From positions 1 to 21,895 of the IMG/VR virus record IMGVR_UViG_3300017727_000194: 21,895 bases of DNA. One strand, written 5' to 3'. The translations under genes and the position numbers were made by a program. How positions within the stretch are numbered: the first letter of the stretch is position 1; each line of letters begins with the position of its first letter. Below are positions 4,706 through 20,186 of the stretch, piece by piece. This DNA is from a virus. The notes under the pieces were generated by a model, which was not told the origin of the DNA, ran no database searches, and was given only the letters and a program-made list of their open reading frames with translations.

Positions 4706-5827
4706 ATGAATAATTATTTACTTGATAATTTTAATAACAACTCTTTAGAATATGATAATGAAAAATACACGTTTGATAAGTATGTATTAGATATCATTCA
4801 AGAGGATTATCCCTATGTAGATGATTTATCAAAAATTCATACTCACGGACTCAGCGGTAATCAAATACTTAAAATTAGTGAAAAGGTTCAAAAATCTTTT
4901 AGTAGTTACGAATTTAGTACTATGATTGATTTGTTTGCTGCCGAATATCTCCAACCATTAATTGGAGACACAGAGTTTCTTGTCAAGAGGTATCCAACTT
5001 TAAATTTCGTTGTTCCTAATCAAGAAGAGATAGGTAGGCGTTTACCTTTTCATCAAGGTATTACCTATGATAATGGTCGGGGGCAAGGAACTATCTGGAT
5101 GCCTTTAACAAAAACATTTGATAGTAATTCTATGTACGTTGTTGACCATGAGAATAGTAAAAAAATTACATCCTTTGCTCTTAAAAATAAAATAACATTT
5201 GAAGAGTGGGAAAGACTGTGTTTACAGAATGCTTATCCTATAAAATATGATGTTGGGTCTGCCCATCTTTTTCATCAAGAAATAATACACGGAAATGTTA
5301 ATAATGTCACTGATAGCACTAGAATGGCTATTGATTGGCATATTCTATTAAAAGATGAAGAGTGTGGACGTAGGATTCCTGGAGGATTTTTTAGAAAAAA
5401 AGACGACTTTTTTACAACTATTTTAAAGAACGATTCTCGTCAAAGTATTATTTACCTATCATGTAATTCCGACTATGATAAAAACATTGTTAAAATACAC
5501 CAAAATGATATAATTAAAAAATACTGTGACCAAAACCAAATTAAGTATAGTTTCAAATTAGAAGAAAACGATCATTTTGCATGGCTGCCTTACTTAGAGA
5601 GCCTAATGGAACATGATTACATAGGCACAATACTTATGCTTAGTATATTCAGCCTACCTGATGACAAAGAACGAAGAAGTACAATACTTCAAAAAGCAGT
5701 AAAAAATAATAAAAAAATTATCTTTGCAAATGAATTACAGGTTCTTCGAGACTCAGAAGATATAAACAAGGTTGAGTATTATAGAACTTTTGCTGTCAAG
5801 AAAAAAGGAAAGTATTATTGGGAATGA
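4706..5827 (+). CDS. Fusion: 2OG-Fe(II) oxygenase-like domain + 'sporadic carbohydrate cluster' domain
   Basis: 373 aa, two parts. Residues about 75-215 resemble the 2OG-Fe(II) oxygenase of the 'sporadic carbohydrate cluster': RLPFHQG (H116), TIWMPLTKTFDSNSMYVV, then SAHLFHQEIIHGN (distal H195) and STRMAIDWH (R206). The family HxD is H116-Q-G118 here, so the iron-binding acid is missing. Residues about 245-370 resemble the partner protein of that cluster (LIC12192-like): IIKKYCDQNQIKY, SLMEHDYIGTILMLSIFSLPDDKERR, IIFANELQVLRDSEDINKVEYYR. In bacteria the two are separate neighbours in loci for surface carbohydrates; here they are joined. Family names are from memory. It starts two bases after the previous stop without a clear Shine-Dalgarno and overlaps the next gene by ATGA. 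Role in glycan synthesis is inferred. Confidence 0.6.
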   Translation: MNNYLLDNFNNNSLEYDNEKYTFDKYVLDIIQEDYPYVDDLSKIHTHGLSGNQILKISEKVQKSFSSYEFSTMIDLFAAEYLQPLIGDTEFLVKRYPTLNFVVPNQEEIGRRLPFHQGITYDNGRGQGTIWMPLTKTFDSNSMYVVDHENSKKITSFALKNKITFEEWERLCLQNAYPIKYDVGSAHLFHQEIIHGNVNNVTDSTRMAIDWHILLKDEECGRRIPGGFFRKKDDFFTTILKNDSRQSIIYLSCNSDYDKNIVKIHQNDIIKKYCDQNQIKYSFKLEENDHFAWLPYLESLMEHDYIGTILMLSIFSLPDDKERRSTILQKAVKNNKKIIFANELQVLRDSEDINKVEYYRTFAVKKKGKYYWE

Positions 5828-6390
5828 TTTATGGTAGTGAAGGTTTAATTGATACAGATTTTACTATTAATACTAATCTTGATACAGATAATCTTTGTTG
5901 GGAAGAAGCTTACTTATTAGCCGCTAACGAAACAGGGGTTTTATTTGATTACAAAGGATCAAATGAAAACATAAAACAAGAGCAGCTATATCTTTCAAAA
6001 GGTATGAATCCTGAATCAAGTAAGCATTATGCTGTTTTTAACGTGTCTTTAGATTTAGATAATTTCTTCCCCAATCATTACTACTATGTATCTTACTTAA
6101 AACTACCTGCAGGGTATAACCTTTGGTGGCATAGGGATTTTTACTATTCTTTCCTTAACAAATTTGATATAAAAAATAGAAATAAAAATTCAATTAGAAG
6201 AACTATAATAAACTTAAATAATTGGAGTCCAGGCCAGTTATTTCAAGTAGAAGACGCTATCGCAGTAAATTGGGAAAAAGGTGATTGTTACACTTTCAGA
6301 GAAAATATCTGGCACGGAGTAGGTAATTTCTCACTTGAAGATTACTTGATCATGCAAATTACTTGGATAGACAAAAATGATGTTTTATGA
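5824..6390 (+). CDS. 2OG-Fe(II) oxygenase-like protein (family member 1)
   Basis: 188 aa from the ATG in the ATGA overlap at 5824. The C-terminal half has a jelly-roll iron/2-oxoglutarate scheme: LWWHRDFY (H103, D105), NNWSPGQLFQ (132-141), NWEKGDCYTF (149-158), IWHGVGN (distal H164). Eight proteins in this window share this layout, close to aspartyl/asparaginyl beta-hydroxylases. Such enzymes hydroxylate a substrate with O2 and 2-oxoglutarate. The residue ten after the distal His, Arg in four paralogues, is a Tyr here (HGVGNFSLEDYLIM), so co-substrate binding may differ. Closest in the central block to the 16662 protein, which also has NWSPGQLF. Overlaps the radical SAM gene by ATGA. Confidence 0.7.
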   Translation: MIYGSEGLIDTDFTINTNLDTDNLCWEEAYLLAANETGVLFDYKGSNENIKQEQLYLSKGMNPESSKHYAVFNVSLDLDNFFPNHYYYVSYLKLPAGYNLWWHRDFYYSFLNKFDIKNRNKNSIRRTIINLNNWSPGQLFQVEDAIAVNWEKGDCYTFRENIWHGVGNFSLEDYLIMQITWIDKNDVL

Positions 6391-8075
6391 AAAATGTGTA
6401 TTTAGCACAGTTTTCTACTGTCTCGCTTGATACCTATTACTTTTTTCCTTACTCTGTAGGACTTATTCGGTCTTATGCTCAATCTATACCTCTAATTTCA
6501 AAAAACTACGATTTAAAACCGCTGTTGTGGAAAAAGCTCCCAATTGATGATTTAGTAAACTCACTTGATAATCCTGCTGTATTTGGTTTTTCTAGTTATG
6601 TATGGAATGCTAACTATAACTTGCAACTTGCAAAAGCTGTCAAAACTAGATACCCAGACTGTATAATCGTGTTTGGGGGTCCTGGGGTTCCTGATGCAGA
6701 TGCAGACTTCTTTACTAATCATCCTTGGGTTGATTATTTAATCCATACTGAAGGCGAGCAGAGTTTTGCAAATCTTTTAGAGACTCTACTAAAAGGTACT
6801 TGTAAATCTCACGTCTCAATTCCAAGTAACCGTACTAAATCACTTGACACAATCCCCTCACCCTATTTATCTGGTGTATTTGATTCAGTGCTTGCAGAAG
6901 CAAAAGATCAGAAAGTGATTATCAATGCTTTGCTTGAAACTAATCGTGGTTGTCCTTTTAAATGTACCTTTTGTGATTGGGGAGGACTCACCTTTTCTAA
7001 GATTCACTGTTTTGATTTAGATCGCATTAAGCAAGAGATAACATGGCTAGGTAAAAATAAAATAGAGATGCTTAGTTTAGCTGATGCAAATTTTGGTATC
7101 TTTCCAGACCGTGATCTTGAGATAGCACAATGGGCAATCAAAACCAAACAAGAGTATGGGTTCCCAAAATACTTTGACACCTCTTGGACTAAAAATACCA
7201 AACCTGAAACTATTGAAACTGCAAAGTTACTGATGCAGGCTGGTATGCTACGTAAATTTGTTATGAGCCTTCAAACTTTAGATGTTCAAACTTTAAGTAA
7301 TATTAAACGTAGAAACATTGATGGTAGTAAGTTTTCACAACTCATTGAAGATCGTAGTGTAAGTGTTTCAACTGAGTTAATAGTTGGATTACCAGGTGAA
7401 ACTCTTACATCTTATAAACAAGGAGTGTGTCAGTTAATTGATGACAATATTAAAATTATTACTAACCCACTTACTTTATTACCAAACTCTGAAATGAGTA
7501 CTCCAGACTATTGTTCTCGATGGTCGATTGAATATGTTACATTTAAAAGTTCGTGGTCTTCTCATAGTGTGGATGAGTGGGAGAATCTTGTAGTTGCTAC
7601 TTCTTCTTATACTACTCAAGATTGGGGTGAAATGATACTTTGGGGTTGGCTCACTGTATTTTTAGAAACTTACTACTGGACTGACTTAATAGCAAAACAA
7701 TTTGATACACAACTGTGGTACGATTGGTGTTATGATTGGTTTAGAACACACGACAACCCCCTTACTCCTTGGCTTTCTAGGTGGGAAAATCATTTGTCTG
7801 ATGGACTAAGCTATGAATTATGGGGAGGAGGAGTTGGTACAACAGATTTAGACGCAAACCAAGCAATTATCGACAGTTCTTCTTGGAATGAAACTTTAGC
7901 ACTATGTATTAAAGAGTTTTGTGAGACTCATTCATTGCCTTATCCTTCTACTTATATACTAGAAACACAAGCTAATAGACATAAAGTTATAGACGGGTAT
8001 TCATCGCTTTCACAACAGCTTGTCGCAAACCGTTGGAACTTTTTATCGCAAAATTTAGAGCACCAAGCTAACTAG
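6387..8075 (+). CDS. Radical SAM protein with B12-binding-like N-terminal domain
   Basis: 562 aa. Residues about 1-140 look like a cobalamin-binding-type Rossmann domain (FGFSSYVWN, CIIVFGGPGVPDADADFF, DYLIHTEGEQSFANLLETLL) but lack the DxHxxG cobalt ligand. Residues 189-196 give C-P-F-K-C-T-F-C, the CxxxCxxC cluster motif, inside ETNRGCPFKCTFCDWGG. Further on come LSLADANFGIFPDRD and STELIVGLPGETLTSY, typical of radical SAM barrels; the last ~180 residues are Trp-rich and unfamiliar. Members of this class methylate unreactive carbons or rearrange substrates in natural-product and cofactor pathways. Last gene of block A, overlapping the oxygenase by ATGA. The substrate is unknown. Confidence 0.8.
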   Translation: MKNVYLAQFSTVSLDTYYFFPYSVGLIRSYAQSIPLISKNYDLKPLLWKKLPIDDLVNSLDNPAVFGFSSYVWNANYNLQLAKAVKTRYPDCIIVFGGPGVPDADADFFTNHPWVDYLIHTEGEQSFANLLETLLKGTCKSHVSIPSNRTKSLDTIPSPYLSGVFDSVLAEAKDQKVIINALLETNRGCPFKCTFCDWGGLTFSKIHCFDLDRIKQEITWLGKNKIEMLSLADANFGIFPDRDLEIAQWAIKTKQEYGFPKYFDTSWTKNTKPETIETAKLLMQAGMLRKFVMSLQTLDVQTLSNIKRRNIDGSKFSQLIEDRSVSVSTELIVGLPGETLTSYKQGVCQLIDDNIKIITNPLTLLPNSEMSTPDYCSRWSIEYVTFKSSWSSHSVDEWENLVVATSSYTTQDWGEMILWGWLTVFLETYYWTDLIAKQFDTQLWYDWCYDWFRTHDNPLTPWLSRWENHLSDGLSYELWGGGVGTTDLDANQAIIDSSSWNETLALCIKEFCETHSLPYPSTYILETQANRHKVIDGYSSLSQQLVANRWNFLSQNLEHQAN

Positions 8076-8092
8076 ATACAGCAAGTCCATAC

Positions 8093-8121
8093 TTGTCAAA
8101 TTGTCCTTTTATGTTTATACT
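8093..8121 (+). promoter_or_regulatory. Sigma70-like promoter for 8157-8943 unit
   Basis: TTGTCA (8093-8098), 17-nt spacer, TATACT (8116-8121) in the gap between the radical SAM gene and the 8157 gene. It would drive the small genes and both tRNAs, possibly also block B. Confidence 0.6.
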
Positions 8122-8156
8122 ACTTCAATAATGATGTTTTTAAGGATTATAATTAA

Positions 8157-8447
8157 ATGATAGGAAATACCTTTTGGGAAGATTTAGAGATAGACGCTCT
8201 TGAAATAGGTGAAGATGTAAAAGCTATGGCTCACGCGCTAGTTGATCATTGGGGTAGTAGTTTAACTGAAAAAGACTTACTTAATTTATCTGCATATTCA
8301 AAGTGTGCCGATACTCCTATTCAATGTGCTATGGCAAAAGCAGCCTTATCCTACTACCAAACTAAAAACTTTATTCCAGAACATATTCATGCTGATATGG
8401 ATACGACTCCTAAGAAAAAGTGGTGGAAGTTTTGGACAGCCGAATGA
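8157..8447 (+). CDS. 96-aa small protein with basic-aromatic tail, unknown
   Basis: ATG 9 bases after AAGGAT. The product is acidic and helical in its first 70 residues (FWEDLEIDALEIGEDVKAMAHALVDHW, LTEKDLLNLSAYSKCA) and ends with a Lys/Trp-rich tail, KKKWWKFWTAE, which could bind membrane or nucleic acid. Two cysteines occur in the middle. I recognise no family. Its TGA overlaps the next ATG. Confidence 0.6.
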   Translation: MIGNTFWEDLEIDALEIGEDVKAMAHALVDHWGSSLTEKDLLNLSAYSKCADTPIQCAMAKAALSYYQTKNFIPEHIHADMDTTPKKKWWKFWTAE

Positions 8448-8668
8448 TTCAACTATATGAGGTGCGCTTAGATAACTGTCTTATGGCTCGCGACCGGTGT
8501 GAAGTAGACAGTTGGGGCTGGACGTTTTGGCAGTCTCGGTTTACAATATTACTAAGAAAATTAAATATCGAACTTACAGGGGCGAAGTGTTACGGTAGCA
8601 CAGCTGGCTCCAACCCAGCGGGACAGGGTTCAATTCCTTGCGCCCCTGCCAATAAGGATTTACAATGA
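8444..8668 (+). CDS. Small Trp-rich protein whose frame reads through tRNA-Trp
   Basis: The ATG at 8444 is in an ATGA overlap. The first ~45 residues (MIQLYEVRLDNCLMARDRCEVDSWGWTFWQS) resemble a small protein I remember from T4-like cyanophages. The remaining ~28 codons are the tRNA-Trp gene (8578-8651) and its flank, ending in a TGA that overlaps the 8665 start. So the C-terminus is either a fortuitous read-through of a tRNA or the protein lost its own stop when the tRNA was inserted. The N-terminal part is credible as coding; the C-terminal part is not evidence of protein function. Confidence 0.5.
   Translation: MIQLYEVRLDNCLMARDRCEVDSWGWTFWQSRFTILLRKLNIELTGAKCYGSTAGSNPAGQGSIPCAPANKDLQ
8578..8651 (+). 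tRNA. tRNA-Trp (CCA)
   Basis: Acceptor AGGGGCG pairs perfectly with CGCCCCT (8641-8647), followed by discriminator G and encoded CCA. D arm GTG...CAC with GG in the loop; anticodon arm GCTGG-CTCCAAC-CCAGC with anticodon CCA; T arm CAGGG-TTCAATT-CCTTG (one G-U pair). The acceptor stem and the GCCA end match bacterial tRNA-Trp closely. The gene lies entirely inside the open frame 8444-8668. Confidence 0.93.
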
Positions 8669-8868
8669 CTGAAATTAAACAAGTAATGATGAGTGAAGAT
8701 AGAACTAGACGAGCTGAGATATTTTCAAAGAATGATGTCTGGCACGTAAATATGATAATTGGAGGACAACTAATTGAATGTCGTCCTATGATTTCTGATG
8801 GGACAGTACACTCACTTCGTTACGCAGAAGATGCAGCAGAGAATTGGTGTATGGGAATTATAGAGTAA
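8665..8868 (+). CDS. 67-aa small phage protein, unknown
   Basis: ATG at 8665 with AAGGA about 8 bases upstream, directly after the tRNA-Trp CCA end; the TAA (8866-8868) abuts the first base of tRNA-Gly. The product (RRAEIFSKNDVWHVNMIIGGQLIECRPMISDGTVHSLRYAEDAAENWCMGIIE) looks like a small beta-sheet plus a C-terminal helix; the 'YAEDAAENW..GI' ending matches small proteins I recall from cyanophages. Function unknown. Wedged between two tRNAs, which implies RNase processing of a mixed mRNA/tRNA transcript. Confidence 0.65.
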   Translation: MTEIKQVMMSEDRTRRAEIFSKNDVWHVNMIIGGQLIECRPMISDGTVHSLRYAEDAAENWCMGIIE

Positions 8869-8943
8869 GCGGGTATAGTATAATGGCTATTATTACAGCC
8901 TTCCAAGCTGAGGATCGGAGTTCGAGTCTCCGTACCCGCTCCA
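8869..8943 (+). tRNA. tRNA-Gly (TCC)
   Basis: Acceptor GCGGGTA (8869-8875) pairs with TACCCGC (8933-8939), then T and encoded CCA. Anticodon loop CTTCCAA between CAGC and GCTG gives anticodon TCC; the outermost anticodon-stem pair is A-A. T arm CGGAG-TTCGAGT-CTCCG is perfect. Its codons, GGA and GGG, suit an AT-rich phage. Confidence 0.93.
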
Positions 8944-8958
8944 AATAAAGGAAAAATA

Positions 8959-9486
8959 ATGTTTCTTAAAGAAGTATCTATAGACTATAACTTTGACTTT
9001 ATTTACGACATTGAATGGGAGCAGTTTGAGCATGACTGTTTAGGACATCAACAAGTAGAACTCAAAGATATTCACGATAAGGTTGGTGGGTTTCCTAAAT
9101 CATTGACCCATCATAATACTATGTTTTATCAGAAATTCTTTGATAACAGCGAGATTGACTTTACAAATTTAGGCAATCAATTAGGTATAGAAGCGATCAC
9201 TGTATCAATAATCAAGCAACCACCTGGTATGACTAATCCTATGCACCGCGATACTTTTTATCAAATCAATAAGAAATTTCCAAATGAAGAAAGAGTAAAA
9301 GTTAGAGCCAACTTACAGCTATTAGATTGGAAAGCAGGACACTTTCTGCAGTTTAATGACACAGTAGTAACGCATTGGAAAGCAAACACTGGGCATATGT
9401 GGGACTCTACTGTTCTTCATTTAGCAGCAAATGCAGGTCTAGAAGATCGTTACTCTCTGCAAGTTTCTGGATTTTTAAACTCTTAA
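8959..9486 (+). CDS. 2OG-Fe(II) oxygenase-like protein (family member 2)
   Basis: 175 aa, the shortest family member, ATG preceded by AAAGGAAA. Conserved scheme: QPPGMTNPMHRDTFY (H96, D98), LLDWKAGHFLQF (121-132), THWKANTGHMW (138-148), VLHLAANAG (distal H154) and DRYSLQVSG (R164, ten after the distal His). All iron and 2-oxoglutarate ligands expected for the fold are present, so it is probably active. Only about 80 residues precede the core, leaving little room for a separate substrate domain. First gene of block B; its TAA overlaps the ATG of the aminotransferase-like gene (TAATG), so it likely acts in the same process as the following three enzymes. Confidence 0.75.
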   Translation: MFLKEVSIDYNFDFIYDIEWEQFEHDCLGHQQVELKDIHDKVGGFPKSLTHHNTMFYQKFFDNSEIDFTNLGNQLGIEAITVSIIKQPPGMTNPMHRDTFYQINKKFPNEERVKVRANLQLLDWKAGHFLQFNDTVVTHWKANTGHMWDSTVLHLAANAGLEDRYSLQVSGFLNS

Positions 9487-10412
9487 TGGTTCGTTATACA
9501 AATCTTCCCGACAATAAGAACAAACCTTTTGGAGGTGCTTACAGTGTTTATGATGAAAATACTGTGTCTCATCGCGACTACTTAATTCAAAAGTATGCAA
9601 AAGATACTTTAAGTCACGACTTTGAACAACTTAAACTTGACTATTTTGATGAATTTAAACACTTTCTCGGAAATTCTCACAATTTAATTGGTCTTGATTC
9701 TTATACTCATTCTTGCTTTACTCAAGGCACTACGGAATCTTTTACTCATTTTTACATCAGATATAGAAATAAAAACAGATTGAGGCTTGCTCGTGGAGAG
9801 TATTTTTATCATCAAATGATAAAATCCATGTACTATCCTATGCGCTTTGATTGGTTGGAGGATGATGAGCTAAGACAAGGAGACGTGTTAGTAATTAGTG
9901 CTCCTTTTTCTGATACTTGTGAACTGTATCCAAATCTTGAGCAAATACTATGTGAGTGTGATGAAAAAGAAATACCTGTTCTTTTGGATCTTGCCTATCT
10001 CAATATTGCAATAGATATGGAGATAGACTTATCGCATCCTTGTTTAGAGTATGTTGTGTCTTCTCTTTCTAAAGTTTTTCCTGTAGAAAATTATAGAATA
10101 GGTATTAGACTACAAAAAGAGATGTTTGAAGACCCGTTATATGTGATTAACGAGCCTAATTATAACTATATTAATATATTAAGCGTGTACTTAGGTTTAA
10201 AAATGATGCAAGAGTTTGGTCCTACCTATATTTACAACAAGTATGTAAACAAACAACAAGAGTACTGTATGAAATTAGGTCTTAAACCCACTTCTTGTGT
10301 ATATTTTGGCTTAGATCTTGATAACAAATTTCCAGAATATAATAGAGGTAGAGAACATAATCGTTTGTGTTTCTCTAGAGTGTGGGATGGGAGAATGACT
10401 CTTGGCATGTAA
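9486..10412 (+). CDS. PLP-dependent aminotransferase-like protein (fold type I)
   Basis: 308 aa from the ATG in a TAATG junction at 9486. A fold-type-I pattern is visible: QGTTES (80-85, phosphate-binding turn), GDVLVISAPFSDTCELYPNLEQIL (132-155), EIPVLLDLAY (D168, cofactor ring aspartate), and SSLSKVFPVENYRIGIRL, where K196 in S-L-S-K would hold PLP. These match class I/II aminotransferases, whose usual length is about 380-420 aa, so this protein is short, mainly in the C-terminal small domain. It may move an amino group onto a keto intermediate or be a divergent decarboxylase-like relative. Directly precedes the amidinotransferase; an amine made here could be its acceptor. That link is inference. 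Confidence 0.6.
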   Translation: MVRYTNLPDNKNKPFGGAYSVYDENTVSHRDYLIQKYAKDTLSHDFEQLKLDYFDEFKHFLGNSHNLIGLDSYTHSCFTQGTTESFTHFYIRYRNKNRLRLARGEYFYHQMIKSMYYPMRFDWLEDDELRQGDVLVISAPFSDTCELYPNLEQILCECDEKEIPVLLDLAYLNIAIDMEIDLSHPCLEYVVSSLSKVFPVENYRIGIRLQKEMFEDPLYVINEPNYNYINILSVYLGLKMMQEFGPTYIYNKYVNKQQEYCMKLGLKPTSCVYFGLDLDNKFPEYNRGREHNRLCFSRVWDGRMTLGM

Positions 10413-11421
10413 TAATGACTGGGATCCGCTAGAGGAAATTATTGTAGGTACTGCTGACTTTGCAAATATCCCTGTTCCTAATATCAGCGTAATGAAATCT
10501 CAATTTCCTGAGTATGAAGAAAGCTTTATCAAAGAATTTACTGGTTTTTACCCAGATCAAATTTTAGAAGAACAAAACGAAGACTTAGACAAACTTGCAG
10601 ACGTGTTAAAAAGATTAGGAGTTACAGTTCATCGTCCTGATACATCGTATGCTACAGCTGATACTAAATCTCCTACTTGGCACGGTAAAAATTGGCATTA
10701 CTATAGCCCAAGAGATTTGACTCTTATCATAGGCGATACACTTATAGAAACTCCGTCACCGATTTGGAATCGTCAATTTGAGACTTGGGGTTATAGAGAT
10801 ATTTTTACTAAGCTTTGGAATGAAGGATATAATTGGATTAAAGCGCCTGTTCCAATGCTTTATGATGAAAATTATAAAGAAGATACTAAAGGCGTACCTT
10901 CTCTGTACAACGAAGAAATACTATTTGAAGCAGCTAATTGCGTTCGTATGAATGAGGACATACTCTATCAAGTATCAAATACAGGCAATGAAAACGGAGC
11001 TAAATGGTTACAACGAGTTCTCGGAGATTCTTACAAAGTGCATGTTGCAAAAGATCTTTATTCTTATGCTCATCTTGATAGTACTATTGTTCCTTTAAGA
11101 GAAGGTCTTGTTCTGTATAATGCAACAAGAGTAACACCTCAAAATGAGCCTGAAGTATTCAAAAATTGGGATAAGATATGGATATATGAGTGTATAGGAT
11201 CAGATAATACATACGGTCTTCCTTGGGGAGCAAGTGAATGGATTGGTATGAACTTACTTAGCGTAAATGAAGATCTTGCTATTGTAGATAAAAAACAAAC
11301 TGAAATTCATGACAAACTAAACCGATTCGGTATTGAAACTATTCCTCTAGAATTAAGACATGATAGAATTTTAGCTGGCGGATTCCATTGTGTAACCTTG
11401 GATCTAAAAAGAAAAAGCTAA
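10402..11421 (+). CDS. Amidinotransferase (glycine/inosamine amidinotransferase family)
   Basis: 339 aa, full family length. Start TTG at 10402, 8 bases after GGGAG; no in-frame ATG lies nearby and NNDWDPLEEIIVG is the normal opening of the family. Landmarks: YSPRDLTLIIGD (PRD 103-105), LFEAANCVRMNEDILYQVSN (174-193), YSYAHLDST (H224, D226), VPLREGLVLYN, LPWGASEWIGMNLL, and AGGFHCVTLDLKR with catalytic C330. The family moves the amidino group of arginine to an amine, giving a guanidino compound, as in creatine, streptomycin and some cyanobacterial toxin pathways. The preceding gene may supply the amine. The acceptor cannot be inferred from sequence. Among the firmest assignments in the window. 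Confidence 0.9.
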   Translation: MACNNDWDPLEEIIVGTADFANIPVPNISVMKSQFPEYEESFIKEFTGFYPDQILEEQNEDLDKLADVLKRLGVTVHRPDTSYATADTKSPTWHGKNWHYYSPRDLTLIIGDTLIETPSPIWNRQFETWGYRDIFTKLWNEGYNWIKAPVPMLYDENYKEDTKGVPSLYNEEILFEAANCVRMNEDILYQVSNTGNENGAKWLQRVLGDSYKVHVAKDLYSYAHLDSTIVPLREGLVLYNATRVTPQNEPEVFKNWDKIWIYECIGSDNTYGLPWGASEWIGMNLLSVNEDLAIVDKKQTEIHDKLNRFGIETIPLELRHDRILAGGFHCVTLDLKRKS

Positions 11422-11423
11422 AC

Positions 11424-12533
11424 ATGATTAACATAGTTCATGATAACTTACCTCACGCAAACGTTTGGTCGCCTGTAAAAGAAGTCAAACGACAAAATTT
11501 TGGACCTATATATAAAAAATCTCTCCCTACTTTTCTTCACTACGGATACGAGTTAGCTTTTTTTGATTCTGCAGATAACCTTGATTCGTTTATATACCCT
11601 GTTTTACTGCATGAACCTTATATTCAGGTTAGATCATTAATAGCAAATCATAATCCTTTTGGTTTTTGGTCACATGTTTCTGACGATGTAATTGAAGGAT
11701 TGAGAGAAAAAAGAGGTTGGATTATTATTGATATATATTCAGAACCTATCACTCAGCATGATTTTGACGCTGTTATAAATTCACTTAATGATTCTTCTGA
11801 GTTTCCAAACGATAGAGTTTTAATAAATACAACTTCTCCTCATTTTACCAAGCACGAAAGAGTGTTTAATTATCCTAGTTTTTTAGAGATGGGGTGTGTG
11901 GTTTATCAAAAAACACATAATAATTTTTCACCCTGCCCCTGTGGTCCCCGTCCTGGTCGTCCTTCAGAGGTAGAATATCCGCACAAAAGATTTTTACTAT
12001 TAAATGCCCACATGGATTATCCTGTAGCTCAGGTTTTTGCTAAATATGCGAGTGAATATACAGATATGTTTTTAGACAGCTCAAACGACGTTTATAATTC
12101 ACCAACATGGAGACCTTCCAAATTTTTAGAGCTGCCTGAAGCACTTCATGCAACTGATATCAATGTTGTGTTAGAAGCTTATGTTGATCATGAGGTAATT
12201 GAATATCCTTTTATTACTGAAAAGACTTATAGAAACATAAAATACAAAAAACCTTTTATCATAATGGGTAATAAGTATTCTCTTTTATCTTTACGCAAAC
12301 TAGGATATAAAACTTTTGATCCACTAATTAACGAGTCTTATGACACCTTAGGAACGTCTAAACACAGATCAAAAGAAGTATTAAAAGAATTAAATAGATT
12401 GAGCCAGATGAATAATTATGAGTGGGATGACCTTATGATACAGTGCAAACCTGTTTTAGAACATAATTACAACAATCTATTAAAGCGTATAAAGCAAACT
12501 AAAGATTGGCTAGAGGGGTTAAAAAATCTATAA
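11424..12533 (+). CDS. Glycosyltransferase-like protein (GT-B C-terminal motif)
   Basis: 369 aa from the ATG at 11424, two bases after the amidinotransferase stop. The C-terminal third has NVVLEAY (248-254), YPFITEKTYRNIKYKKPFIIMGNK (261-284), and LSLRKLGYKTFDPLINESYD, the 'ITEKT.....KPF...G....L..LG..TF' pattern of GT-B nucleotide-sugar binding domains such as fucosyltransferase-like and exostosin-like enzymes, which is widespread in marine phage proteins. The N-terminal part is unfamiliar and holds an odd CPCGPRPGRP segment (171-180). If it is a glycosyltransferase, block B could build a sugar carrying an amino or guanidino group. Its TAA overlaps the next ATG (TAATG). Confidence 0.55.
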   Translation: MINIVHDNLPHANVWSPVKEVKRQNFGPIYKKSLPTFLHYGYELAFFDSADNLDSFIYPVLLHEPYIQVRSLIANHNPFGFWSHVSDDVIEGLREKRGWIIIDIYSEPITQHDFDAVINSLNDSSEFPNDRVLINTTSPHFTKHERVFNYPSFLEMGCVVYQKTHNNFSPCPCGPRPGRPSEVEYPHKRFLLLNAHMDYPVAQVFAKYASEYTDMFLDSSNDVYNSPTWRPSKFLELPEALHATDINVVLEAYVDHEVIEYPFITEKTYRNIKYKKPFIIMGNKYSLLSLRKLGYKTFDPLINESYDTLGTSKHRSKEVLKELNRLSQMNNYEWDDLMIQCKPVLEHNYNNLLKRIKQTKDWLEGLKNL

Positions 12534-14303: not shown

Positions 14304-14306
14304 AAG

Positions 14307-14315: not shown

Positions 14316-14323
14316 TTTGAAGT

Positions 14324-14374: not shown

Positions 14375-14382
14375 GAGTTTTT
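14364..14382 (+). terminator. Hairpin with T tract that also holds the SD of 14385
   Basis: ACTCC (14364-14368), loop TTTTA, GGAGT (14374-14378), then TTTT. The right arm contains the AGGAG of the following gene. It could act as a weak terminator, as a translational mask, or as both (attenuator). The stem is only 5 bp. Confidence 0.4.
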
Positions 14383-14384
14383 AA

Positions 14385-14975
14385 TTGCAACCTTTTCCCT
14401 ATCTTGGTTTTTTCAAACAACTTCTGCCTTATGAAGATATCATAAGGTATCACTATTCTATACCTAAAGATGTGTGGACTGATAGATGTAGTCCTCTTGA
14501 TGGTACGGTACACTCACATAGACCTACAGAAGAGGTTGTTCAAAGCACTCTTTATTCCAAACAAAATGCTTCTTATAAAGAATTAGTAGTTAAACACTTA
14601 AATTTCTTTTCAGATGAGTGGTTTTCTGCAGTAGGAGCTTTGAATACAGACTACCAAGCTAAAATTTTCTGTACTCAACCTGGCAACACAGAACCCCCAC
14701 ATAAAGATTTTTTCCCTGGTTTTTTAGGACACACCAACGATAAGGGAGATATCTACAATCAAAAAGAGATAGATCAACTCGGTAAAAAAATAATCAGATG
14801 TTGGATACCCCTCATGGATAGTAAGATAGGTCATTTACTTTATTCTGATAATTATGCTCTTAGTTCTTGGAAATTAGGTGATGTATATGAATTACCTTCT
14901 GGCACTTCCCACGGATTTGTAAATGCTGGTAGAGAAGATAGATATGTTTTAGTCTTCACTGGTTGGAGATCTTAA
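14385..14975 (+). CDS. 2OG-Fe(II) oxygenase-like protein (family member 3)
   Basis: 196 aa, TTG start at 14385, 7 bases after AGGAG; a TAA directly precedes it in frame and no early ATG exists. Core: TEPPHKDFF (H106, D108), CWIPLMDSKIGHLLY (139-153), SWKLGDVYELPSG (161-173), TSHGFVNAG (distal H176), DRYVLVFTG (R186). The central 'DW' of the family is DS here. All metal ligands and the co-substrate Arg are present. The 30-residue insert between HxD and the core (GHTNDKGDIYNQKEIDQLGKK) is longer than in member 2 and may shape the substrate site. First gene of block C; TAATG junction to the next paralogue. Confidence 0.7.
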   Translation: MQPFPYLGFFKQLLPYEDIIRYHYSIPKDVWTDRCSPLDGTVHSHRPTEEVVQSTLYSKQNASYKELVVKHLNFFSDEWFSAVGALNTDYQAKIFCTQPGNTEPPHKDFFPGFLGHTNDKGDIYNQKEIDQLGKKIIRCWIPLMDSKIGHLLYSDNYALSSWKLGDVYELPSGTSHGFVNAGREDRYVLVFTGWRS

Positions 14976-15667
14976 TGCACGATTATTTATCTTTGTTTGA
15001 GAAAGTTGAGACTTGTCAGGATTGGTATGACTTTCTTGATAACCCAAATTATGATAGCATTGATTTTGGTTATGCTCTAATGCACAAATTTTGGGATTCA
15101 GACATTCCTCCGTATACTTATTTAGGCAATATCGGCGGTAATTGGGTTTGGAATAAACCGGATAGCGATCCCAAACCTAATGGTTGTGGTCTTGGTAGTG
15201 AACAAGCAAAGATTGACGAATTTAAATACTATAAAAGTTATGATAAATACCCGATTGATTCACTACTACAAAAAATGGTTGAGGTACTTCAAGTTGATAA
15301 ACCAACAGCAGTTGTAAATTATCAAACTCCTAACAATATTACTAGACTTCACTTTGATATTATGACTACGTTTTTAGAAGATCGTAATGACTTAAATGAT
15401 ATACCGTTTGATAGAGATACACTACAACCAGTCGGCATGAAACCTTTACGTAGGTTTTTTATTGCTTTAACTGATTGGCGAGATGGTCATGTTTTTCAAA
15501 TGGGCACCCAACAGTGGGCAGGGTGGAGGAAAGGTGACGTAATAGATTTTCATTGGCGTGGAGTCCCGCATAGTACCGCAAATACTGGTTTTAGTGATCG
15601 TGCCTTACTAAAAGTTAATGGTTTTAGTGATATTACTTACTTTGGTGATATCATTTTGAATAGTTAA
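14975..15667 (+). CDS. 2OG-Fe(II) oxygenase-like protein (family member 4)
   Basis: 230 aa from the ATG in TAATG at 14975. Core: NNITRLHFDIM (H126, D128), FIALTDWRDGHVFQMG (162-177), GWRKGDVIDF (183-192), VPHSTANTG (distal H199), SDRALLKVNG (R209). All expected ligands are present. The N-terminal ~110 residues include a Trp- and Gly-rich stretch (GNIGGNWVWNKPDSDPKPNGCGLG, in part) not seen in the other members, a possible substrate-recognition region. Followed after two bases by the PP-loop gene, suggesting a shared step such as activation then hydroxylation of a substrate. Confidence 0.75.
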   Translation: MHDYLSLFEKVETCQDWYDFLDNPNYDSIDFGYALMHKFWDSDIPPYTYLGNIGGNWVWNKPDSDPKPNGCGLGSEQAKIDEFKYYKSYDKYPIDSLLQKMVEVLQVDKPTAVVNYQTPNNITRLHFDIMTTFLEDRNDLNDIPFDRDTLQPVGMKPLRRFFIALTDWRDGHVFQMGTQQWAGWRKGDVIDFHWRGVPHSTANTGFSDRALLKVNGFSDITYFGDIILNS

Positions 15668-15669
15668 AG

Positions 15670-16653
15670 ATGTTTGATATATATTGGGAGTATGCAGGTA
15701 CTCGATACAAGCATAAACTTCAAGTAGTAAACTCCGCCCGTGGAGATATACGTAATATTACATTTAATGTATTTTCTGATAAGTATTTTTCTTTTGATTT
15801 TACAAAAGAACCAAGTGAGAAATTTGATGAGCTTCTTAAACAAAGAGCTTTACAGTTAAGAGATAAGTACAAATACATTAAACTTTATTTTAGTGGAGGG
15901 CAAGATAGTATTACAATGCTTCATGCCTTTATTAAGAATAATATACCACTAGATGAAGTTATCATATATAGATTTGGTAATGAAAATAGCGAATCTAATA
16001 TAGAAGCTGATAAACACGCTATTCCATATGCAAAAAAAGTTCTTAATGGAACAAAAACTAAATTATCAATCCATGAGAACAAAATAGATTATTTTAATAA
16101 ATATTTAGGTGAAAAATGGCTTTTTACTCGTTCTTCTATGTCCTTGAGACATTTTAATTTACCTAGAATAAAAGGGAACAACTTTTGCCATTTATTTGGT
16201 TTGCTTGACCCAAAAGTTTACTTTGAAGATGGATTTTATTATACAAGACTATTTGATACTGAAATAAATGAGTTAGCTCAATATAAAAATGTTGAATTTT
16301 TTTATACCAGTGAAGATTTTATTGATCTTCACATCAAACAGCTTCATTTAGTTAAGAACTTTATAAAAAATAGTCCTGATAGGGATAAAATTTTAGCTCT
16401 ATACTACGATGATCCTCAGAATTATGATGACATAGTAAAGAGAGTGTGTAGAGATGATCCTTTATTTGGTAAACTTTTTATAAAGCATATATACAACACG
16501 GTTTTAGGTGATAAAGACAAGATTTTATATTCTGAGCTTGATCAAGTATTAAAAGACAAGTTTCGTTATCAATTATCAACTAAGGTCAATGGGCAATACG
16601 CTTTTAAACAGCTCATAGCTTATGAAACTGGCCGTATCTGCTTAGGCCAATAG
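15670..16653 (+). CDS. PP-loop ATPase / asparagine synthase-like protein
   Basis: 327 aa. IKLYFSGGQDSITMLHAF has the PP-loop SGGxDS at residues 75-80, which binds the pyrophosphate of ATP; the following LDEVIIYRFG and NIEADKHAIPYAKKVL fit the alpha-hydrolase fold. PP-loop enzymes adenylate a carboxylate or carbonyl to make amide, thiolated or amidated products (asparagine synthase, tRNA thiolation, beta-lactam synthetase). The first ~60 residues form an unfamiliar beta-rich domain, not a glutaminase, since there is no N-terminal Cys. The C-terminal half is also unfamiliar. It sits between two 2OG oxygenases, so it may activate the molecule they oxidise. Substrate unknown. Confidence 0.65.
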   Translation: MFDIYWEYAGTRYKHKLQVVNSARGDIRNITFNVFSDKYFSFDFTKEPSEKFDELLKQRALQLRDKYKYIKLYFSGGQDSITMLHAFIKNNIPLDEVIIYRFGNENSESNIEADKHAIPYAKKVLNGTKTKLSIHENKIDYFNKYLGEKWLFTRSSMSLRHFNLPRIKGNNFCHLFGLLDPKVYFEDGFYYTRLFDTEINELAQYKNVEFFYTSEDFIDLHIKQLHLVKNFIKNSPDRDKILALYYDDPQNYDDIVKRVCRDDPLFGKLFIKHIYNTVLGDKDKILYSELDQVLKDKFRYQLSTKVNGQYAFKQLIAYETGRICLGQ

Positions 16654-16661
16654 GAGAAGAA

Positions 16662-17573
16662 ATGTCATATGTTAAAAGAAAATTAGATGAACTTGATGAA
16701 TCGCAGAACAAAGTTGGTGGTTCAGAGTTTTTACATAAACATCCATATGATCCTCAAATTCTGGAAGAAATACGAGATGATATGATGAAGCCTCGCACTT
16801 GTGCGGAGTTTATGCACTGGGTTGAGATGAATCCGCACTATGATATGGTTGCTGAGGCTAGTAGTCAGTTCATACGCGGTAATCCACAAGATGTTTGTTT
16901 TTGGAATTGTGCTAAAGTTGAAACTGATTGGGCTCCGATAGTCAAGAAGATTGATGATTTTGCTAAGGAGAATCAGGTTGTTGAGAATTTTGATACAACA
17001 CACACCGATGAGTGGCGTTTGAATAAACAAGAAAAACAAAAAGAATTTGTTCCCTTTAGGCACAACTCAGAACTTGTTAACATGCGTATGCATGGGTTTA
17101 AAAAACAATATCAACTTCTGGAAGTAACTTTGTCTGATAGTTTTCCAGAACTACAGGAAATAGCTAATCTCTTTGAGTTTACTTGGGAAAAGACTGATAT
17201 TAATTTTCAACCACCTAGTGGTCAGTTTCCTCGTCATGTTGACTTTTTAGCTACACCACTCAAAAGAGCAATTGAATATGATTCTTCCATCGCTAATCTA
17301 CCTTATAACCCAATAACTAAATCTCCTGAAGGCTGGCGGTTGTGTAGAATTTTATTAGCACTTGAAAACTGGTCTCCTGGACAGTTATTTTCTTATGAAA
17401 ACTACAACTGGACAAATTGGGCTCAAGGCGATGCTGTTAACTTTAATTTTGCTTCTGTTAGACATGCTACTTCTAATTGTAGTTATGTTAATAGACCTTT
17501 ATTAAAGATTTCAGGATTTATCAAAGAAGACCACTGGTTAGCTAAAAAAGAATTTAGGAGGTTAGTATATTGA
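16662..17573 (+). CDS. 2OG-Fe(II) oxygenase-like protein (family member 5)
   Basis: 303 aa, longest member; ATG 5 bases after AGGAGAAG. Core: SGQFPRHVDFL (H192, D194), LLALENWSPGQLFSYEN (231-247), NWAQGDAVNF (252-261), VRHATSNCS (distal H268), NRPLLKISG (R278). The co-substrate Arg is present. The core is preceded by some 175 residues with an acidic helical start (ILEEIRDDMMKPRTCAEFMHW) and a basic KQEKQKEFVPFRH segment, a larger N-terminal domain than in any paralogue. The central motif NWSPGQLF is shared with member 1 in block A, suggesting a common origin of the two blocks. Its TGA overlaps the TTG start of the next gene. Confidence 0.75.
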   Translation: MSYVKRKLDELDESQNKVGGSEFLHKHPYDPQILEEIRDDMMKPRTCAEFMHWVEMNPHYDMVAEASSQFIRGNPQDVCFWNCAKVETDWAPIVKKIDDFAKENQVVENFDTTHTDEWRLNKQEKQKEFVPFRHNSELVNMRMHGFKKQYQLLEVTLSDSFPELQEIANLFEFTWEKTDINFQPPSGQFPRHVDFLATPLKRAIEYDSSIANLPYNPITKSPEGWRLCRILLALENWSPGQLFSYENYNWTNWAQGDAVNFNFASVRHATSNCSYVNRPLLKISGFIKEDHWLAKKEFRRLVY

Positions 17574-17821
17574 TTACTTATCAACAAGTTAAAAACTATA
17601 TTACAAATAACATAGAATCTATCGAAAGAGATGACTTTTATCTACTTGAAGGTAAATTAGTATTCAAAGACCTTTCAAAGGCTAAAATAGTTTGCACTTA
17701 TTTTGAAGATAGAAACTTAACTGTTATATTCAATACTACAAAAATTTGGGATCATTGGAACACTGAGTACGCAGCTGAGATGTACTTTTCTGATGGATTT
17801 GAGGATTTTAAATGGAAGTAA
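17570..17821 (+). CDS. 83-aa small protein between oxygenases, unknown
   Basis: TTG start at 17570, 8 bases after a strong AGGAGG (17556-17561), inside a TTGA overlap with the previous stop. The product (MITYQQVKNYITNNIESIERDDFYLLEGKLVFKDLSKAKIVCTYFEDRNLTVIFNT in outline) alternates hydrophobic and polar residues as in a small beta-sheet protein with an N-terminal helix, and ends with aromatic, acidic residues. It shows no HxD or cysteine pair. Overlap with both neighbours ties it to the oxygenase operon; it could be an adaptor or carrier for the pathway, but there is no Ser-attachment motif of a carrier protein. Confidence 0.6.
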   Translation: MITYQQVKNYITNNIESIERDDFYLLEGKLVFKDLSKAKIVCTYFEDRNLTVIFNTTKIWDHWNTEYAAEMYFSDGFEDFKWK

Positions 17822-18486
17822 TTGATATTGAGTCTAAATTTTCAAAACATTTTGATTGGCATTTTGACCCTCTAAAGAAAGATCATAATGATTGTCCTGA
17901 TCTTGGTGTCATGCCTTTTGATTATAAGTCTTTATCTTCTCATTTTATAGAAAAATGTTCTTCTCAAGATAGGAAAGCAAACGGCAAAGGTTGGGATTAC
18001 TACTTTGAAAATGGTAATTTAAGACAAGATATTATTGAAAGTAAGTCTGAGGGATTTCAAGAGCTATTCCAAGTTTGGTTAGACACTGGATGGACTCATG
18101 AAAACAGTTGCTACTTTGAATTTTGGGATGAAGATCTTGAAGACTTTTATCAACCACTATTAGATGCTTACTTTGAGTTTGTAGGAGAATTAAAACATAC
18201 TCAAATTAGACTGTTTATCAAACCTCCCATGACTACGCTTGGACTTCATGCTGATACTTATAATTCTTATTGTAGAAAACACAGCATCAATACAGATCAG
18301 GTTTTTAGAGTTCAAACTTTCGTAGAAGATTGGGAGTGGGGTCATTATAATTTGATAGGCAACCACGTGTGTCATCAATATAATGCTGGTCAGTCACAAC
18401 AAATAAAACAAAACGTTTTTCATTTATCTGGTAACTTTGGGTTTAACCCCATGTGTACTATGAATATTACAGGAGTCAAAACATGA
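17812..18486 (+). CDS. 2OG-Fe(II) oxygenase-like protein (family member 6)
   Basis: 224 aa, overlapping the previous gene by 10 bases. Core: TTLGLHADTYNSY (H146, D148), VEDWEWGHYNLIGNH (171-185), VFHLSGNFG (distal H204); the co-substrate position holds M214 instead of Arg (NPMCTMNITG), so 2-oxoglutarate binding may be altered or lost. The N-terminus FDWHFDPLKKDHNDCPDLG is shared with member 7 (PWHWDPMKKDHDDDWYL), marking a gene duplication. The W..GD step of the core is degraded here (YNAGQSQQ), a second sign of divergence. May be a partner or inactive paralogue of member 7. Confidence 0.7.
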   Translation: MEVIDIESKFSKHFDWHFDPLKKDHNDCPDLGVMPFDYKSLSSHFIEKCSSQDRKANGKGWDYYFENGNLRQDIIESKSEGFQELFQVWLDTGWTHENSCYFEFWDEDLEDFYQPLLDAYFEFVGELKHTQIRLFIKPPMTTLGLHADTYNSYCRKHSINTDQVFRVQTFVEDWEWGHYNLIGNHVCHQYNAGQSQQIKQNVFHLSGNFGFNPMCTMNITGVKT

Positions 18487-18644
18487 GCAGGGAGTTTTTA
18501 GTTATTATGGCACCAACGCAAAAAGAAATAGAATGGTTAGAGAATCATCCTCGATGGTATCGGTATACACCTGGTTATAAATTTGCTAGGAGAGTAAGAA
18601 TTTTTTTCAAAAGGAGCATTAAAAAATGGATGACCCGACGGTAA
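18483..18644 (+). CDS. 53-aa basic small protein, unknown
   Basis: ATG in an ATGA overlap at 18483, with AGGAG (18470-18474) 8 bases upstream. The product has REFLVIMAPTQKEIEWLENHPRW at the start and a strongly basic C-terminus (KFARRVRIFFKRSIKKWMTRR, in outline), which could bind nucleic acid or membrane lipid. It overlaps the next oxygenase gene by 19 bases. No family recognised; placement between two duplicated paralogues suggests it arose or was kept with the duplication. Confidence 0.55.
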   Translation: MSREFLVIMAPTQKEIEWLENHPRWYRYTPGYKFARRVRIFFKRSIKKWMTRR

Positions 18645-19399
18645 TTAAGTTTCCACTTACTTCTGGTAGGCATGATCCTAAACATACTGTTGTACCAGAA
18701 ATATTAGAACAACACCCTTGGCATTGGGATCCAATGAAGAAAGATCATGATGATGATTGGTATTTAACTAATTATGCTGATGAGTTTGACTGGGAAGGTT
18801 TAACTCAATGGTGTTTTCAAAAATGTAATCAACACGGACGCTTTCAAAAATACTGGGTATATGATTACGAAACTGAGAAAATTTGGCACGGTACTGACGA
18901 TGCTACTAATTCTCCTATTCGTGACCAAGCATTATTGATGATGCGTAATAACACTATCACTACAGGAAATACTCCATACTTCAAACTTGCAAATGAAGAG
19001 TTCGAACATTGGGAAAAACCACTTCGTGACTTATTTCCTATGTTAAAACAAGATAAGTTAGGTATTTCACTATTTATTCAACCCCCTGGTTCTATGCATT
19101 GGAGTCATTGTGATACTTATTCATCTTTTATTAGACGCACTGGAGATGCAAAACCAAATTATGAACGTCTACGTAGGTACATGATTTTTCCTCGCGATTG
19201 GGACTTCGGACATTTTTTTCATTATGGTAATCATGTAATGAATCAATGGGAATGTGGGGATGTCTGGGACTTGAGACCAGGCGTTTATCACGGAAGTGCA
19301 AATTGCGGTCCTACACCAAAAGTAACAATCCATTGGAGCGGAGAGCTTGAAGATGGATATGACGATAACCTCGCACATAAGGAGATGATAATTGGATAA
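18626..19399 (+). CDS. 2OG-Fe(II) oxygenase-like protein (family member 7)
   Basis: 257 aa, ATG 9 bases after AAGGAG. Core: SMHWSHCDTYSSF (H161, D163), FPRDWDFGHFFHYGNH (188-203), QWECGDVWDLRPG (207-219), VYHGSANCG (distal H222), with K232 in place of the usual Arg; Lys can bind 2-oxoglutarate in some family branches. The N-terminal half parallels member 6 (PWHWDPMKKDHDD). Very rich in Trp, His and Asp. It overlaps the next gene by 8 bases. Likely active by ligand set; substrate unknown. Confidence 0.75.
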   Translation: MDDPTVIKFPLTSGRHDPKHTVVPEILEQHPWHWDPMKKDHDDDWYLTNYADEFDWEGLTQWCFQKCNQHGRFQKYWVYDYETEKIWHGTDDATNSPIRDQALLMMRNNTITTGNTPYFKLANEEFEHWEKPLRDLFPMLKQDKLGISLFIQPPGSMHWSHCDTYSSFIRRTGDAKPNYERLRRYMIFPRDWDFGHFFHYGNHVMNQWECGDVWDLRPGVYHGSANCGPTPKVTIHWSGELEDGYDDNLAHKEMIIG

Positions 19400-20186
19400 A
19401 GATTACTCACTTAAAGATATTGTATCCGCTGATGGATATGTACCTGAAAATCCAGAATACTATATGGAAACTAGTCGTATGGCTCGTTATCCTGAAGTAG
19501 AACTATGGGATTTTATCGAAAATAGACCTGATACTGAATGGATTAAGTTTTCTGAAGAAACAGGAGCTAATTTAACAGATACACATAACGCTGAAGATTG
19601 GTTTGTTGGTAATTTTGCTATCAACCAAGAAGATTTTATTCAGTTTATGAAAGAAAATAAAGAAACTTGTCAAAAGAAGTTTTACGAAGCTAGACCATAC
19701 CATACAGGTCGCAACGAGTTTACATTAGATCTTCCTATGAAGGTAGGTTACAACTCTATGAATTGTTGTGAATATAACTGGGGTCTCTACGGTGATTCTG
19801 CTAATAAACTAAAAGAGATTTTAGGTCGTGACTTTTTTGAACAAATTGGTATGGACTATGATACCTGTTTACCTAGGTTAATGGCTTATCTTCCAGGACA
19901 AACTTTGCCTTGGCACTTTGACTATTTAGGGGGTTGGGGTCGTGTTAATAATCATCTCAATTTTGATCCTGATACACGTCAATGTGATTTAGGAGAAGTA
20001 AAAAGACTACTACTAATGGTGTCAGACTGGCATTGGGGGCATATGCTTCAAATGGCAAACAGTTTTTACCCACGCTGGAAATCAGGGGATTTGTATGAAA
20101 TTCCTATGATGACCTACCACTTATCCACAAATGCTGGGATGAGTTTAAAATTATCAATGAGTTTATCAGGAGCAATGATACGATGA
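19392..20186 (+). CDS. 2OG-Fe(II) oxygenase-like protein (family member 8)
   Basis: 264 aa, TTG start at 19392, 7 bases after AAGGAG (19379-19384), overlapping the previous gene. Core: PGQTLPWHFDYLGGWG (H175, D177), VSDWHWGHMLQMAN (210-223), RWKSGDLYEIP (228-238), TYHLSTNAG (distal H243), with K253 in the co-substrate position, as in member 7. The N-terminal ~120 residues are acidic and aromatic (ENPEYYMETSRMARYPEVELWDF) and differ from the other members. Followed through ATGA by the racemase-fold enzyme, closing the oxygenase series. Confidence 0.75.
   Translation: MDKDYSLKDIVSADGYVPENPEYYMETSRMARYPEVELWDFIENRPDTEWIKFSEETGANLTDTHNAEDWFVGNFAINQEDFIQFMKENKETCQKKFYEARPYHTGRNEFTLDLPMKVGYNSMNCCEYNWGLYGDSANKLKEILGRDFFEQIGMDYDTCLPRLMAYLPGQTLPWHFDYLGGWGRVNNHLNFDPDTRQCDLGEVKRLLLMVSDWHWGHMLQMANSFYPRWKSGDLYEIPMMTYHLSTNAGMSLKLSMSLSGAMIR

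What the first reader, a model, noticed from the sequence alone, without database searches (positions are those of the whole stretch)
5824..20186. Eight paralogous 2OG-Fe(II) oxygenase-like proteins in 14 kb of a phage genome
Proteins at 5824, 8959, 14385, 14975, 16662, 17812, 18626 and 19392 all show HxD, a central [DN]W..G[HQ] (DS in 14385), usually W..GD, and a distal H followed four residues later by N. Six lie in one tight operon. They differ strongly in N-terminal regions, which suggests different substrates or successive steps rather than simple copies. Single 2OG oxygenases are usual in marine T4-like phages; this many next to amidinotransferase, radical SAM, PP-loop and racemase-fold genes looks like a dedicated pathway. 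Alternatives: hydroxylation of tail or host proteins, or of modified nucleotides.
Basis: partly seen in the sequence, partly recalled or inferred. Interest (0 to 1): 0.85.

Follow-up and report, generated by a model that had tools for sequence, protein, structure and literature searches.

The report
Phage island of paralogous iron oxygenases
A marine phage carries a cluster of eight related iron-dependent oxygenases beside enzymes that add amino and guanidino groups, and because related phages keep the same gene sets together it is probably a dedicated chemical tailoring pathway, most likely for an unusual sugar, although the product is unknown.

Summary
All eight proteins are paralogous 2OG-Fe(II) oxygenases of the HxD...H type; a ninth, of another subfamily, lies at 4706-5827. 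AlphaFold2 gives the expected beta-helix fold, with AspH and prolyl hydroxylases among the nearest solved oxygenases. They are distant PF05118 relatives that Pfam and PHROGs do not file, and they form eight old orthologous groups; four have dN/dS 0.01-0.04.

The pathway idea gains support. Part 1 (4706-12533) holds a core of 2OG oxygenase, PLP enzyme and StrB1-like amidinotransferase (44% identical to streptomycin StrB1); 19 of 24 non-redundant viral loci keep these within 3 kb, and a Bdellovibrionota contig has them too. Part 2 (14385-20186), six oxygenases plus a PP-loop gene, recurs as arrays in at least five other viral contigs, some with sugar-type DegT aminotransferases. Carbohydrate cues make an amino/guanidino sugar or glycan the best guess; the substrate is unproven.

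Likely new: the conserved arrays and their linkage to an amidinotransferase.

The parts
4706..5827 (+). Ninth 2OG oxygenase: PhyH-like fusion of SpoChoClust_2 and SpoChoClust_1 ('sporadic carbohydrate cluster') domains
   Evidence: TIGR04324 E 2.9e-18 and TIGR04323 E 1.4e-10, both below curated cut-off; PF05721 E 0.023; family in 39 of the loci clustered; conserved in A11
5824..6390 (+). 2OG oxygenase paralog 1 (core module)
   Evidence: orthologs in L026 and third-group loci; residue ten after the distal His is Tyr
6387..8075 (+). Cobalamin-binding radical SAM enzyme, KedN5-like C-methyltransferase
   Evidence: NF033712 E 1.2e-70, below cut-off; PF04055 E 1e-9
8959..9486 (+). 2OG oxygenase paralog 2 (core module)
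   Evidence: AlphaFold2 pLDDT 94.4; Foldseek AspH TMq 0.52; orthologs precede PLP and amidinotransferase in the window's group of loci
9483..10412 (+). Short fold-type-I PLP enzyme (aminotransferase-like), Lys in SLSK
   Evidence: PF00155 E 0.0038 here, 7.9e-6 best in family; 3if2 aminotransferase E 0.0065; invariant D169, S196-K197, R205
10402..11421 (+). StrB1-like amidinotransferase
   Evidence: PDB 1BWD E 1.4e-89, 44.5% identity over 335 positions; D105, E176, H224, D226, C330
11424..12533 (+). F3 protein, possible glycosyltransferase (family unassigned)
   Evidence: Family of 67 in 49 loci; no Pfam or PDB match; glycosyltransferase guess rests on a TEK motif recalled from GT10 enzymes
14385..14975 (+). 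2OG oxygenase paralog 3 (array)
   Evidence: orthologs in L008, L113, L114
14975..15667 (+). 2OG oxygenase paralog 4 (array)
   Evidence: ortholog in L113, likely L117 and L118
15670..16653 (+). PP-loop (SGGQDS) ATP-pyrophosphatase-like protein
   Evidence: motif in sequence; PHROG PAPS reductase E 5.5e-5; no Pfam match; conserved in L008, L113, L114, L117, L118
16662..17573 (+). 2OG oxygenase paralog 5 (array)
   Evidence: 96% identical in L008, dN/dS 0.030
17812..18486 (+). 2OG oxygenase paralog 6 (array); Met ten after the distal His
   Evidence: dN/dS 0.038
18626..19399 (+). 2OG oxygenase paralog 7 (array)
   Evidence: orthologs in L008, L113, L114, L117, L118, L026; dN/dS 0.009
19392..20186 (+). 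2OG oxygenase paralog 8 (array)
   Evidence: AlphaFold2 pLDDT 77, core mostly above 85; Foldseek AspH; orthologs in L008, L009, L026, L113, L114, L117; dN/dS 0.031

Best explanation
A mobile tailoring pathway in a T4-like marine phage, in two linked modules. The core module (4706-12533) probably works as follows: the PLP enzyme puts an amino group on a carrier-bound or nucleotide-linked acceptor, most likely a sugar; the StrB1-like amidinotransferase moves the amidino group of L-arginine onto that amine; 2OG oxygenases hydroxylate the product; the B12 radical SAM enzyme may C-methylate it; F3 may transfer it. The array (14385-20186) adds six further 2OG oxygenases, each with its own position or step, plus a PP-loop ATP-using step. 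The product would be a guanidinylated, multiply hydroxylated sugar or glycan that decorates the virion or host surface, or a soluble small molecule. Shown here: enzyme families, conserved catalytic residues, old distinct orthologous groups, purifying selection where measured, and conserved linkage. Inferred: that all parts act on one product, that it is carbohydrate, the order of steps, and the benefit.
For: Linkage: of 24 amidinotransferase clusters at 90% identity, 20 have the 2OG family and 21 the PLP enzyme within 3 kb, 19 both; 2OG genes are 26 in 132 kb near and 6 in 199 kb farther off. The module moves between genome contexts as a unit and occurs on a Bdellovibrionota contig with UvrC. 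Arrays with 6-8 paralogs in five other viral records, old orthologous groups, dN/dS 0.009-0.038. Amidinotransferase closest to inosamine-phosphate StrB1. Carbohydrate cues: SpoChoClust fusion, DegT aminotransferases and epimerase-like gene inside arrays, dTDP-glucose 4,6-dehydratase-like neighbour, glycosyltransferases beside the module in S-SCSM2R, a distant amidinotransferase relative in a Prochlorococcus NeuB/cytidylyltransferase region.
Against: No substrate is known. SpoChoClust and PF05118 matches are below curated cut-offs. F3 and the PP-loop protein have no assigned family. The records of L114, L117 and L118 show arrays without an amidinotransferase (fragments), so the two modules may be separate pathways. 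PF05118-type enzymes include protein, amino-acid and lipid hydroxylases, so the fold does not point to sugars. The 80 loci examined are the best-scoring of 445.
Confidence: 0.42

Rival explanations
1. A dedicated small-molecule or peptide pathway that is not carbohydrate: non-protein amino acids, or a ribosomally made peptide, modified by the PLP enzyme, amidinotransferase, radical SAM enzyme and 2OG hydroxylases.
For: PLP enzyme is Aminotran_1_2-like; KedN5/RiPP-type B12 radical SAM matches; SPASM-like radical SAM genes in related loci; a Trp-halogenase and carbamoyltransferase beside the amidinotransferase in L108.
Against: Sugar-type families recur in the neighbourhood. No precursor peptide was looked for systematically.
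Confidence: 0.27
2. Independent post-translational hydroxylases of virion or host proteins, each paralog with its own protein target.
For: Nearest solved folds include AspH with peptide and the Pseudomonas prolyl hydroxylase with EF-Tu; paralogs differ in their N-terminal parts.
Against: Does not explain the tight linkage to amidinotransferase, PLP enzyme, DegT and PP-loop genes.
Confidence: 0.15
3. Hypermodification of phage DNA bases or tRNA by hydroxylation and amidination.
For: In the window's group the module lies between ribonucleotide reductase/PhoH-type and RNase H/ThyX-type genes.
Against: In another group it lies beside tail genes and in L105 on a bacterial contig. No nucleic-acid-modifying 2OG family was among the matches of the eight at E up to 10.
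Confidence: 0.08
4. The enzymes serve to consume 2-oxoglutarate and shift host nitrogen signalling rather than to make a product.
For: Proposed by Sullivan et al. 2010 for cyanophage 2OG oxygenases (PMC3037559).
Against: Eight divergent, separately conserved enzymes with linked amidino- and aminotransferases are not needed to burn 2OG.
Confidence: 0.04

Closest known systems
PF05118 Asp/Arg hydroxylase family (AspH, LpxO, proline hydroxylases)
   Same: Weak profile matches in 12 of 55 members, best E 3.9e-5; AspH among the best folds; distal H-x-x-x-N
   Different: The eight are all below the Pfam cut-off; full HxD...H triad, where AspH is known (from general knowledge) to lack the Asp; residue ten after the distal His is variable
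StrB1 inosamine-phosphate amidinotransferase (streptomycin pathway)
   Same: 44.5% identity, catalytic Cys, His and Asp positions kept
   Different: Phage genes lie with 2OG oxygenases and a short PLP enzyme; StrB1 Asp179 position is Glu in the window; acceptor unknown
Synechococcus phage S-SCSM2R cluster
   Same: Same 2OG family directly before the same amidinotransferase family, amid glycosyltransferases and a radical SAM gene
   Different: One family member only, no array, no PLP-family member found
Pelagibacter phage Mosig EXVC030M cluster
   Same: PLP-family relative close to two Asp_Arg_Hydrox genes that match the 2OG profile at E 9e-11 and 5e-5, near tail fibre genes; isolate available
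   Different: No amidinotransferase in the stretch examined; no array
Campylobacter phage CP220/CPt10 radical SAM plus amidinotransferase modules
   Same: Same amidinotransferase family in an exchangeable cluster with sugar-nucleotide transferase domains (PMC2853527)
   Different: No 2OG or PLP relative found
Multi-2OG cyanophage S-SCSM1 (24 genes)
   Same: Many 2OG oxygenases in one phage genome (PMC9602691)

Membership tests
2OG-Fe(II) oxygenase superfamily | HxD...H iron-binding triad | tested here: met
   Present in all eight, invariant in 55 members and in every complete array member
2OG-Fe(II) oxygenase superfamily | Double-stranded beta-helix fold | tested here: met
   Models of 8959 and 19392 match solved 2OG oxygenases; the other six not modelled
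2OG-Fe(II) oxygenase superfamily | Basic residue that anchors 2OG | tested here: inconclusive
   Arg or Lys ten after the distal His in six of eight; Tyr in 5824, Met in 17812; Arg116 invariant in the eight and may serve instead
2OG-Fe(II) oxygenase superfamily | Fe- and 2OG-dependent oxidation | not testable with these tools
   Needs enzymology
PF05118 Asp_Arg_Hydrox | Match above the Pfam gathering score | tested here: not met
   Three of the eight match weakly, 14.6-17.8 bits against cut-off 22.6; five do not match
StrB/GATM amidinotransferases | Homology over full length with catalytic Cys-His-Asp | tested here: met
   E 1.4e-89 to StrB1; C330, H224, D105 and D226 conserved, Asp179 position Glu or Asp
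StrB inosamine-phosphate amidinotransferase proper | Acts on an aminocyclitol phosphate | not testable with these tools
   Sequence similarity only
Sporadic carbohydrate cluster 2OG oxygenase (TIGR04324/TIGR04323) | Match above NCBIfam cut-off | tested here: not met
   66 of 150 bits and 41 of 55 bits; a clear relative, not a member by the model's own threshold
Radical SAM with B12-binding domain, KedN5 subfamily | Match above NCBIfam cut-off | tested here: not met
   238 of 700 bits, E 1.2e-70: relative only
TET/JBP-type nucleic acid 2OG oxygenases | TET/JBP profile match | tested here: not met
   No such family among Pfam matches of the eight at E up to 10

The most novel reading that the evidence does not exclude
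Marine phages encode a complete pathway for a guanidinylated, multiply hydroxylated aminosugar or aminocyclitol, chemically akin to streptidine-type units, assembled by a StrB1-like amidinotransferase and a series of regiospecific 2OG oxygenases, used on the virion surface or as a diffusible compound.
Probability: 0.13. Interest if true: 0.9.

Novelty: new variant of a known kind. Interest (0 to 1): 0.62.

Why it matters
Phages with many 2OG oxygenases are known but their roles are unexplained. Here the oxygenases are tied by conserved neighbourhood to an amidinotransferase whose chemistry is known, which turns a vague 'auxiliary metabolic gene' into a testable pathway. If true, common marine viruses make guanidino compounds or glycans of a kind otherwise known from antibiotic producers. 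The four-gene bacterial version and the isolates S-SCSM2R and Mosig give tractable starting points.

Tried and rejected
Recent tandem duplication or decaying copies: rejected, long branches between groups and dN/dS 0.009-0.038 for four array genes. A named Pfam, PHROG or NCBIfam family for the eight: none passes its cut-off. Profile A1 as a collection query: no conserved stretch. 14975 alone found no relatives. F3 as a named glycosyltransferase: no match. PP-loop protein as a named subfamily: no match. Nearest named phage by DNA: none. Literature on 'sporadic carbohydrate cluster', or on amidinotransferase with 2OG genes in phage genomes: nothing held. EutA-like 20183 as part of the conserved set: not found in the other arrays. 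A first regular-expression check of the motifs failed because its spacings were wrong; the alignment-based check replaces it. E-values of the iterated family profile include its own seeds and are not used as proof; the single-query search is. The tree holds some rows cut short by domain boundaries, so single placements such as L118_9485 are unreliable.
Full report
What is there. The window is a 21,895-base IMG/VR virus record at about 35% G+C with two tRNA genes, an Hsp20 gene of a kind common in marine T4-like phages and no close DNA match among named phages. All eight ORFs of the finding exist. They align in their C-terminal part, with invariant HxD, R, G and H-x-x-x-N. A single protein (19392) finds six of its seven siblings in the window by tblastn at E 1e-4 to 1e-9, and BLAST clustering with relatives joins all eight. 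A ninth 2OG oxygenase of another subfamily lies directly upstream at 4706-5827; it resembles a fusion of two 'sporadic carbohydrate cluster' proteins, below the curated cut-offs.

Family and fold. No Pfam, PHROG or NCBIfam family claims the eight; PF05118 (Asp/Arg hydroxylase) matches weakly. AlphaFold2 on 8959 with 55 sequences gives pLDDT 94. Foldseek finds 2OG oxygenases, including AspH (TMq 0.52, rmsd 3.3) and prolyl hydroxylases; in the viral library the best matches are from uncultured tailed phages. The 19392 model (pLDDT 77 overall, core mostly above 85) also hits double-stranded beta-helix proteins, AspH among them. The other six were not modelled, but share the motifs. Across 55 members the triad never varies and Arg116, on the strand before the [DN]W..G motif, is in 54. 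The usual basic residue ten after the distal His is Tyr in 5824 and Met in 17812. I infer that Arg116 may anchor 2OG in this family; this is untested.

Old and distinct. Trees place the eight in eight separate orthologous groups, with long branches between most of them. The 19392, 18626, 14385, 14975, 8959 and 5824 groups have members in other phage contigs; 16662 and 17812 were seen only in the near relative L008. Between the window and L008, dN/dS is 0.009-0.038 for four array genes; the 5824 and 8959 genes give 0.020-0.067 against L026 and L027, apart from one nearly identical pair. The array genes overlap or nearly touch, gaps -34 to +8 nt. Redundancy and decay are therefore unlikely.

Core module. 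A search with the amidinotransferase profile found 445 relatives in IMG/VR, of which 80 were kept. Collapsed at 90% identity these give 24 clusters; 20 have the 2OG family within 3 kb, 21 the PLP enzyme, 19 both. 2OG genes number 26 in 132 kb near the amidinotransferase and 6 in 199 kb farther off in the same loci. Gene order varies: 2OG-PLP-amidinotransferase in the window's group, PLP-amidinotransferase-2OG-2OG in a second, other orders in a third. In the first group the module lies among NrdA/NrdB/PhoH- and RNase H/ThyX-type genes, in the second beside tail sheath and neck-type genes (those names come from my own reading of the sequences). The module thus moves as a unit. It also occurs on a Bdellovibrionota contig as 2OG-amidinotransferase-PLP-F3 near UvrC; that is a metagenome-assembled genome, but UvrC is on the same contig.

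Array. Searches with the PP-loop and 18626 proteins found further arrays. Whole-record counts are 8 in the record of L113, 7 in that of L114, 6 in that of L117, 8 in that of L118 and 6 in that of L008. L113 has both core module and array, like the window. In L118 the array holds two DegT/DnrJ/EryC1 aminotransferases (E 4e-54, 2e-51) and a weak epimerase match; L117 has similar genes by position and sequence. These are typical sugar-pathway families. The records of L114, L117 and L118 show no amidinotransferase, but they are fragments.

Chemistry. The amidinotransferase is 44.5% identical to streptomycin StrB1 over 335 positions, with E 1.4e-89 against 4e-53 for HsvA and about 1e-48 for the human glycine enzyme. 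Its Asp105, His224 and Asp226 are invariant in 86 copies and Cys330 is present in 85; the StrB1 Asp179 position is Glu or Asp in nearly all. The 9483 protein is a short aminotransferase-like PLP enzyme. The 6387 protein is a KedN5-like B12 radical SAM enzyme. From these families I infer amine installation, then amidino transfer, then several hydroxylations. Carbohydrate as the scaffold rests on the fusion protein, DegT and dehydratase neighbours, glycosyltransferases in S-SCSM2R and a distant relative in a Prochlorococcus NeuB region. This is circumstantial.

Known context. Cyanophages carry 1-5 2OG oxygenases (PMC3037559; PMC9602691) and S-SCSM1 has 24, of other subfamilies (PMC9602691). Asp/Asn beta-hydroxylase is core to pelagimyophages (PMC7029224). 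Campylobacter phages swap whole radical SAM plus amidinotransferase clusters (PMC2853527). The pelagiphage isolate Mosig has a related PLP gene between Asp_Arg_Hydrox genes, close to tail fibre genes. I found no paper describing the amidinotransferase-2OG module or the conserved arrays, but the library is partial.

Verdict. The substrate remains open: carbohydrate first, other small molecule or peptide second, protein hydroxylation third, nucleotides fourth.

Noticed in passing
window 20183-20947: EutA-like (ectoine utilization) Asp/Glu racemase-superfamily gene, TIGR02990 E 7.8e-63, overlapping the last oxygenase by 4 nt; no relative in the other arrays searched.
   Followed up: partly
window 839-1588 and 1862-2233: DUF6071 protein (PF19547, E 2e-16) and a mannose-6-phosphate isomerase-type cupin (PF01050, E 3e-21); a mannose-6-phosphate isomerase gene is also reported in cyanophage S-SCSM1 (PMC9602691).
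   Followed up: no
L108:12510-16054: Contig binned as Chloroflexi but with a phage-type RNase H gene carries a tryptophan halogenase (E 1e-63), a carbamoyltransferase (E 3e-53) and a DegT-like gene near the amidinotransferase: possibly a viral natural-product cluster.
   Followed up: partly
L109:8872-21087: Prochlorococcus single-cell genome with a distant amidinotransferase between NeuB and a cytidylyltransferase, with DegT nearby: possible guanidino-nonulosonate.
   Followed up: partly
L105:509-4887: Compact 2OG-amidinotransferase-PLP-F3 set on a Bdellovibrionota contig, no phage genes seen nearby.
   Followed up: partly
L100:3-1931: Predicted adenylate cyclase-like protein (my reading of the sequence) of about 640 aa next to second-group phage loci, in 16 loci; unusual for a phage.
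   Followed up: no
L026:17037-17865: Second PLP-family gene in the array region is split over two frames in L026, and a whole one lies there in L008 (5021-5884) but not in the window.
   Followed up: no
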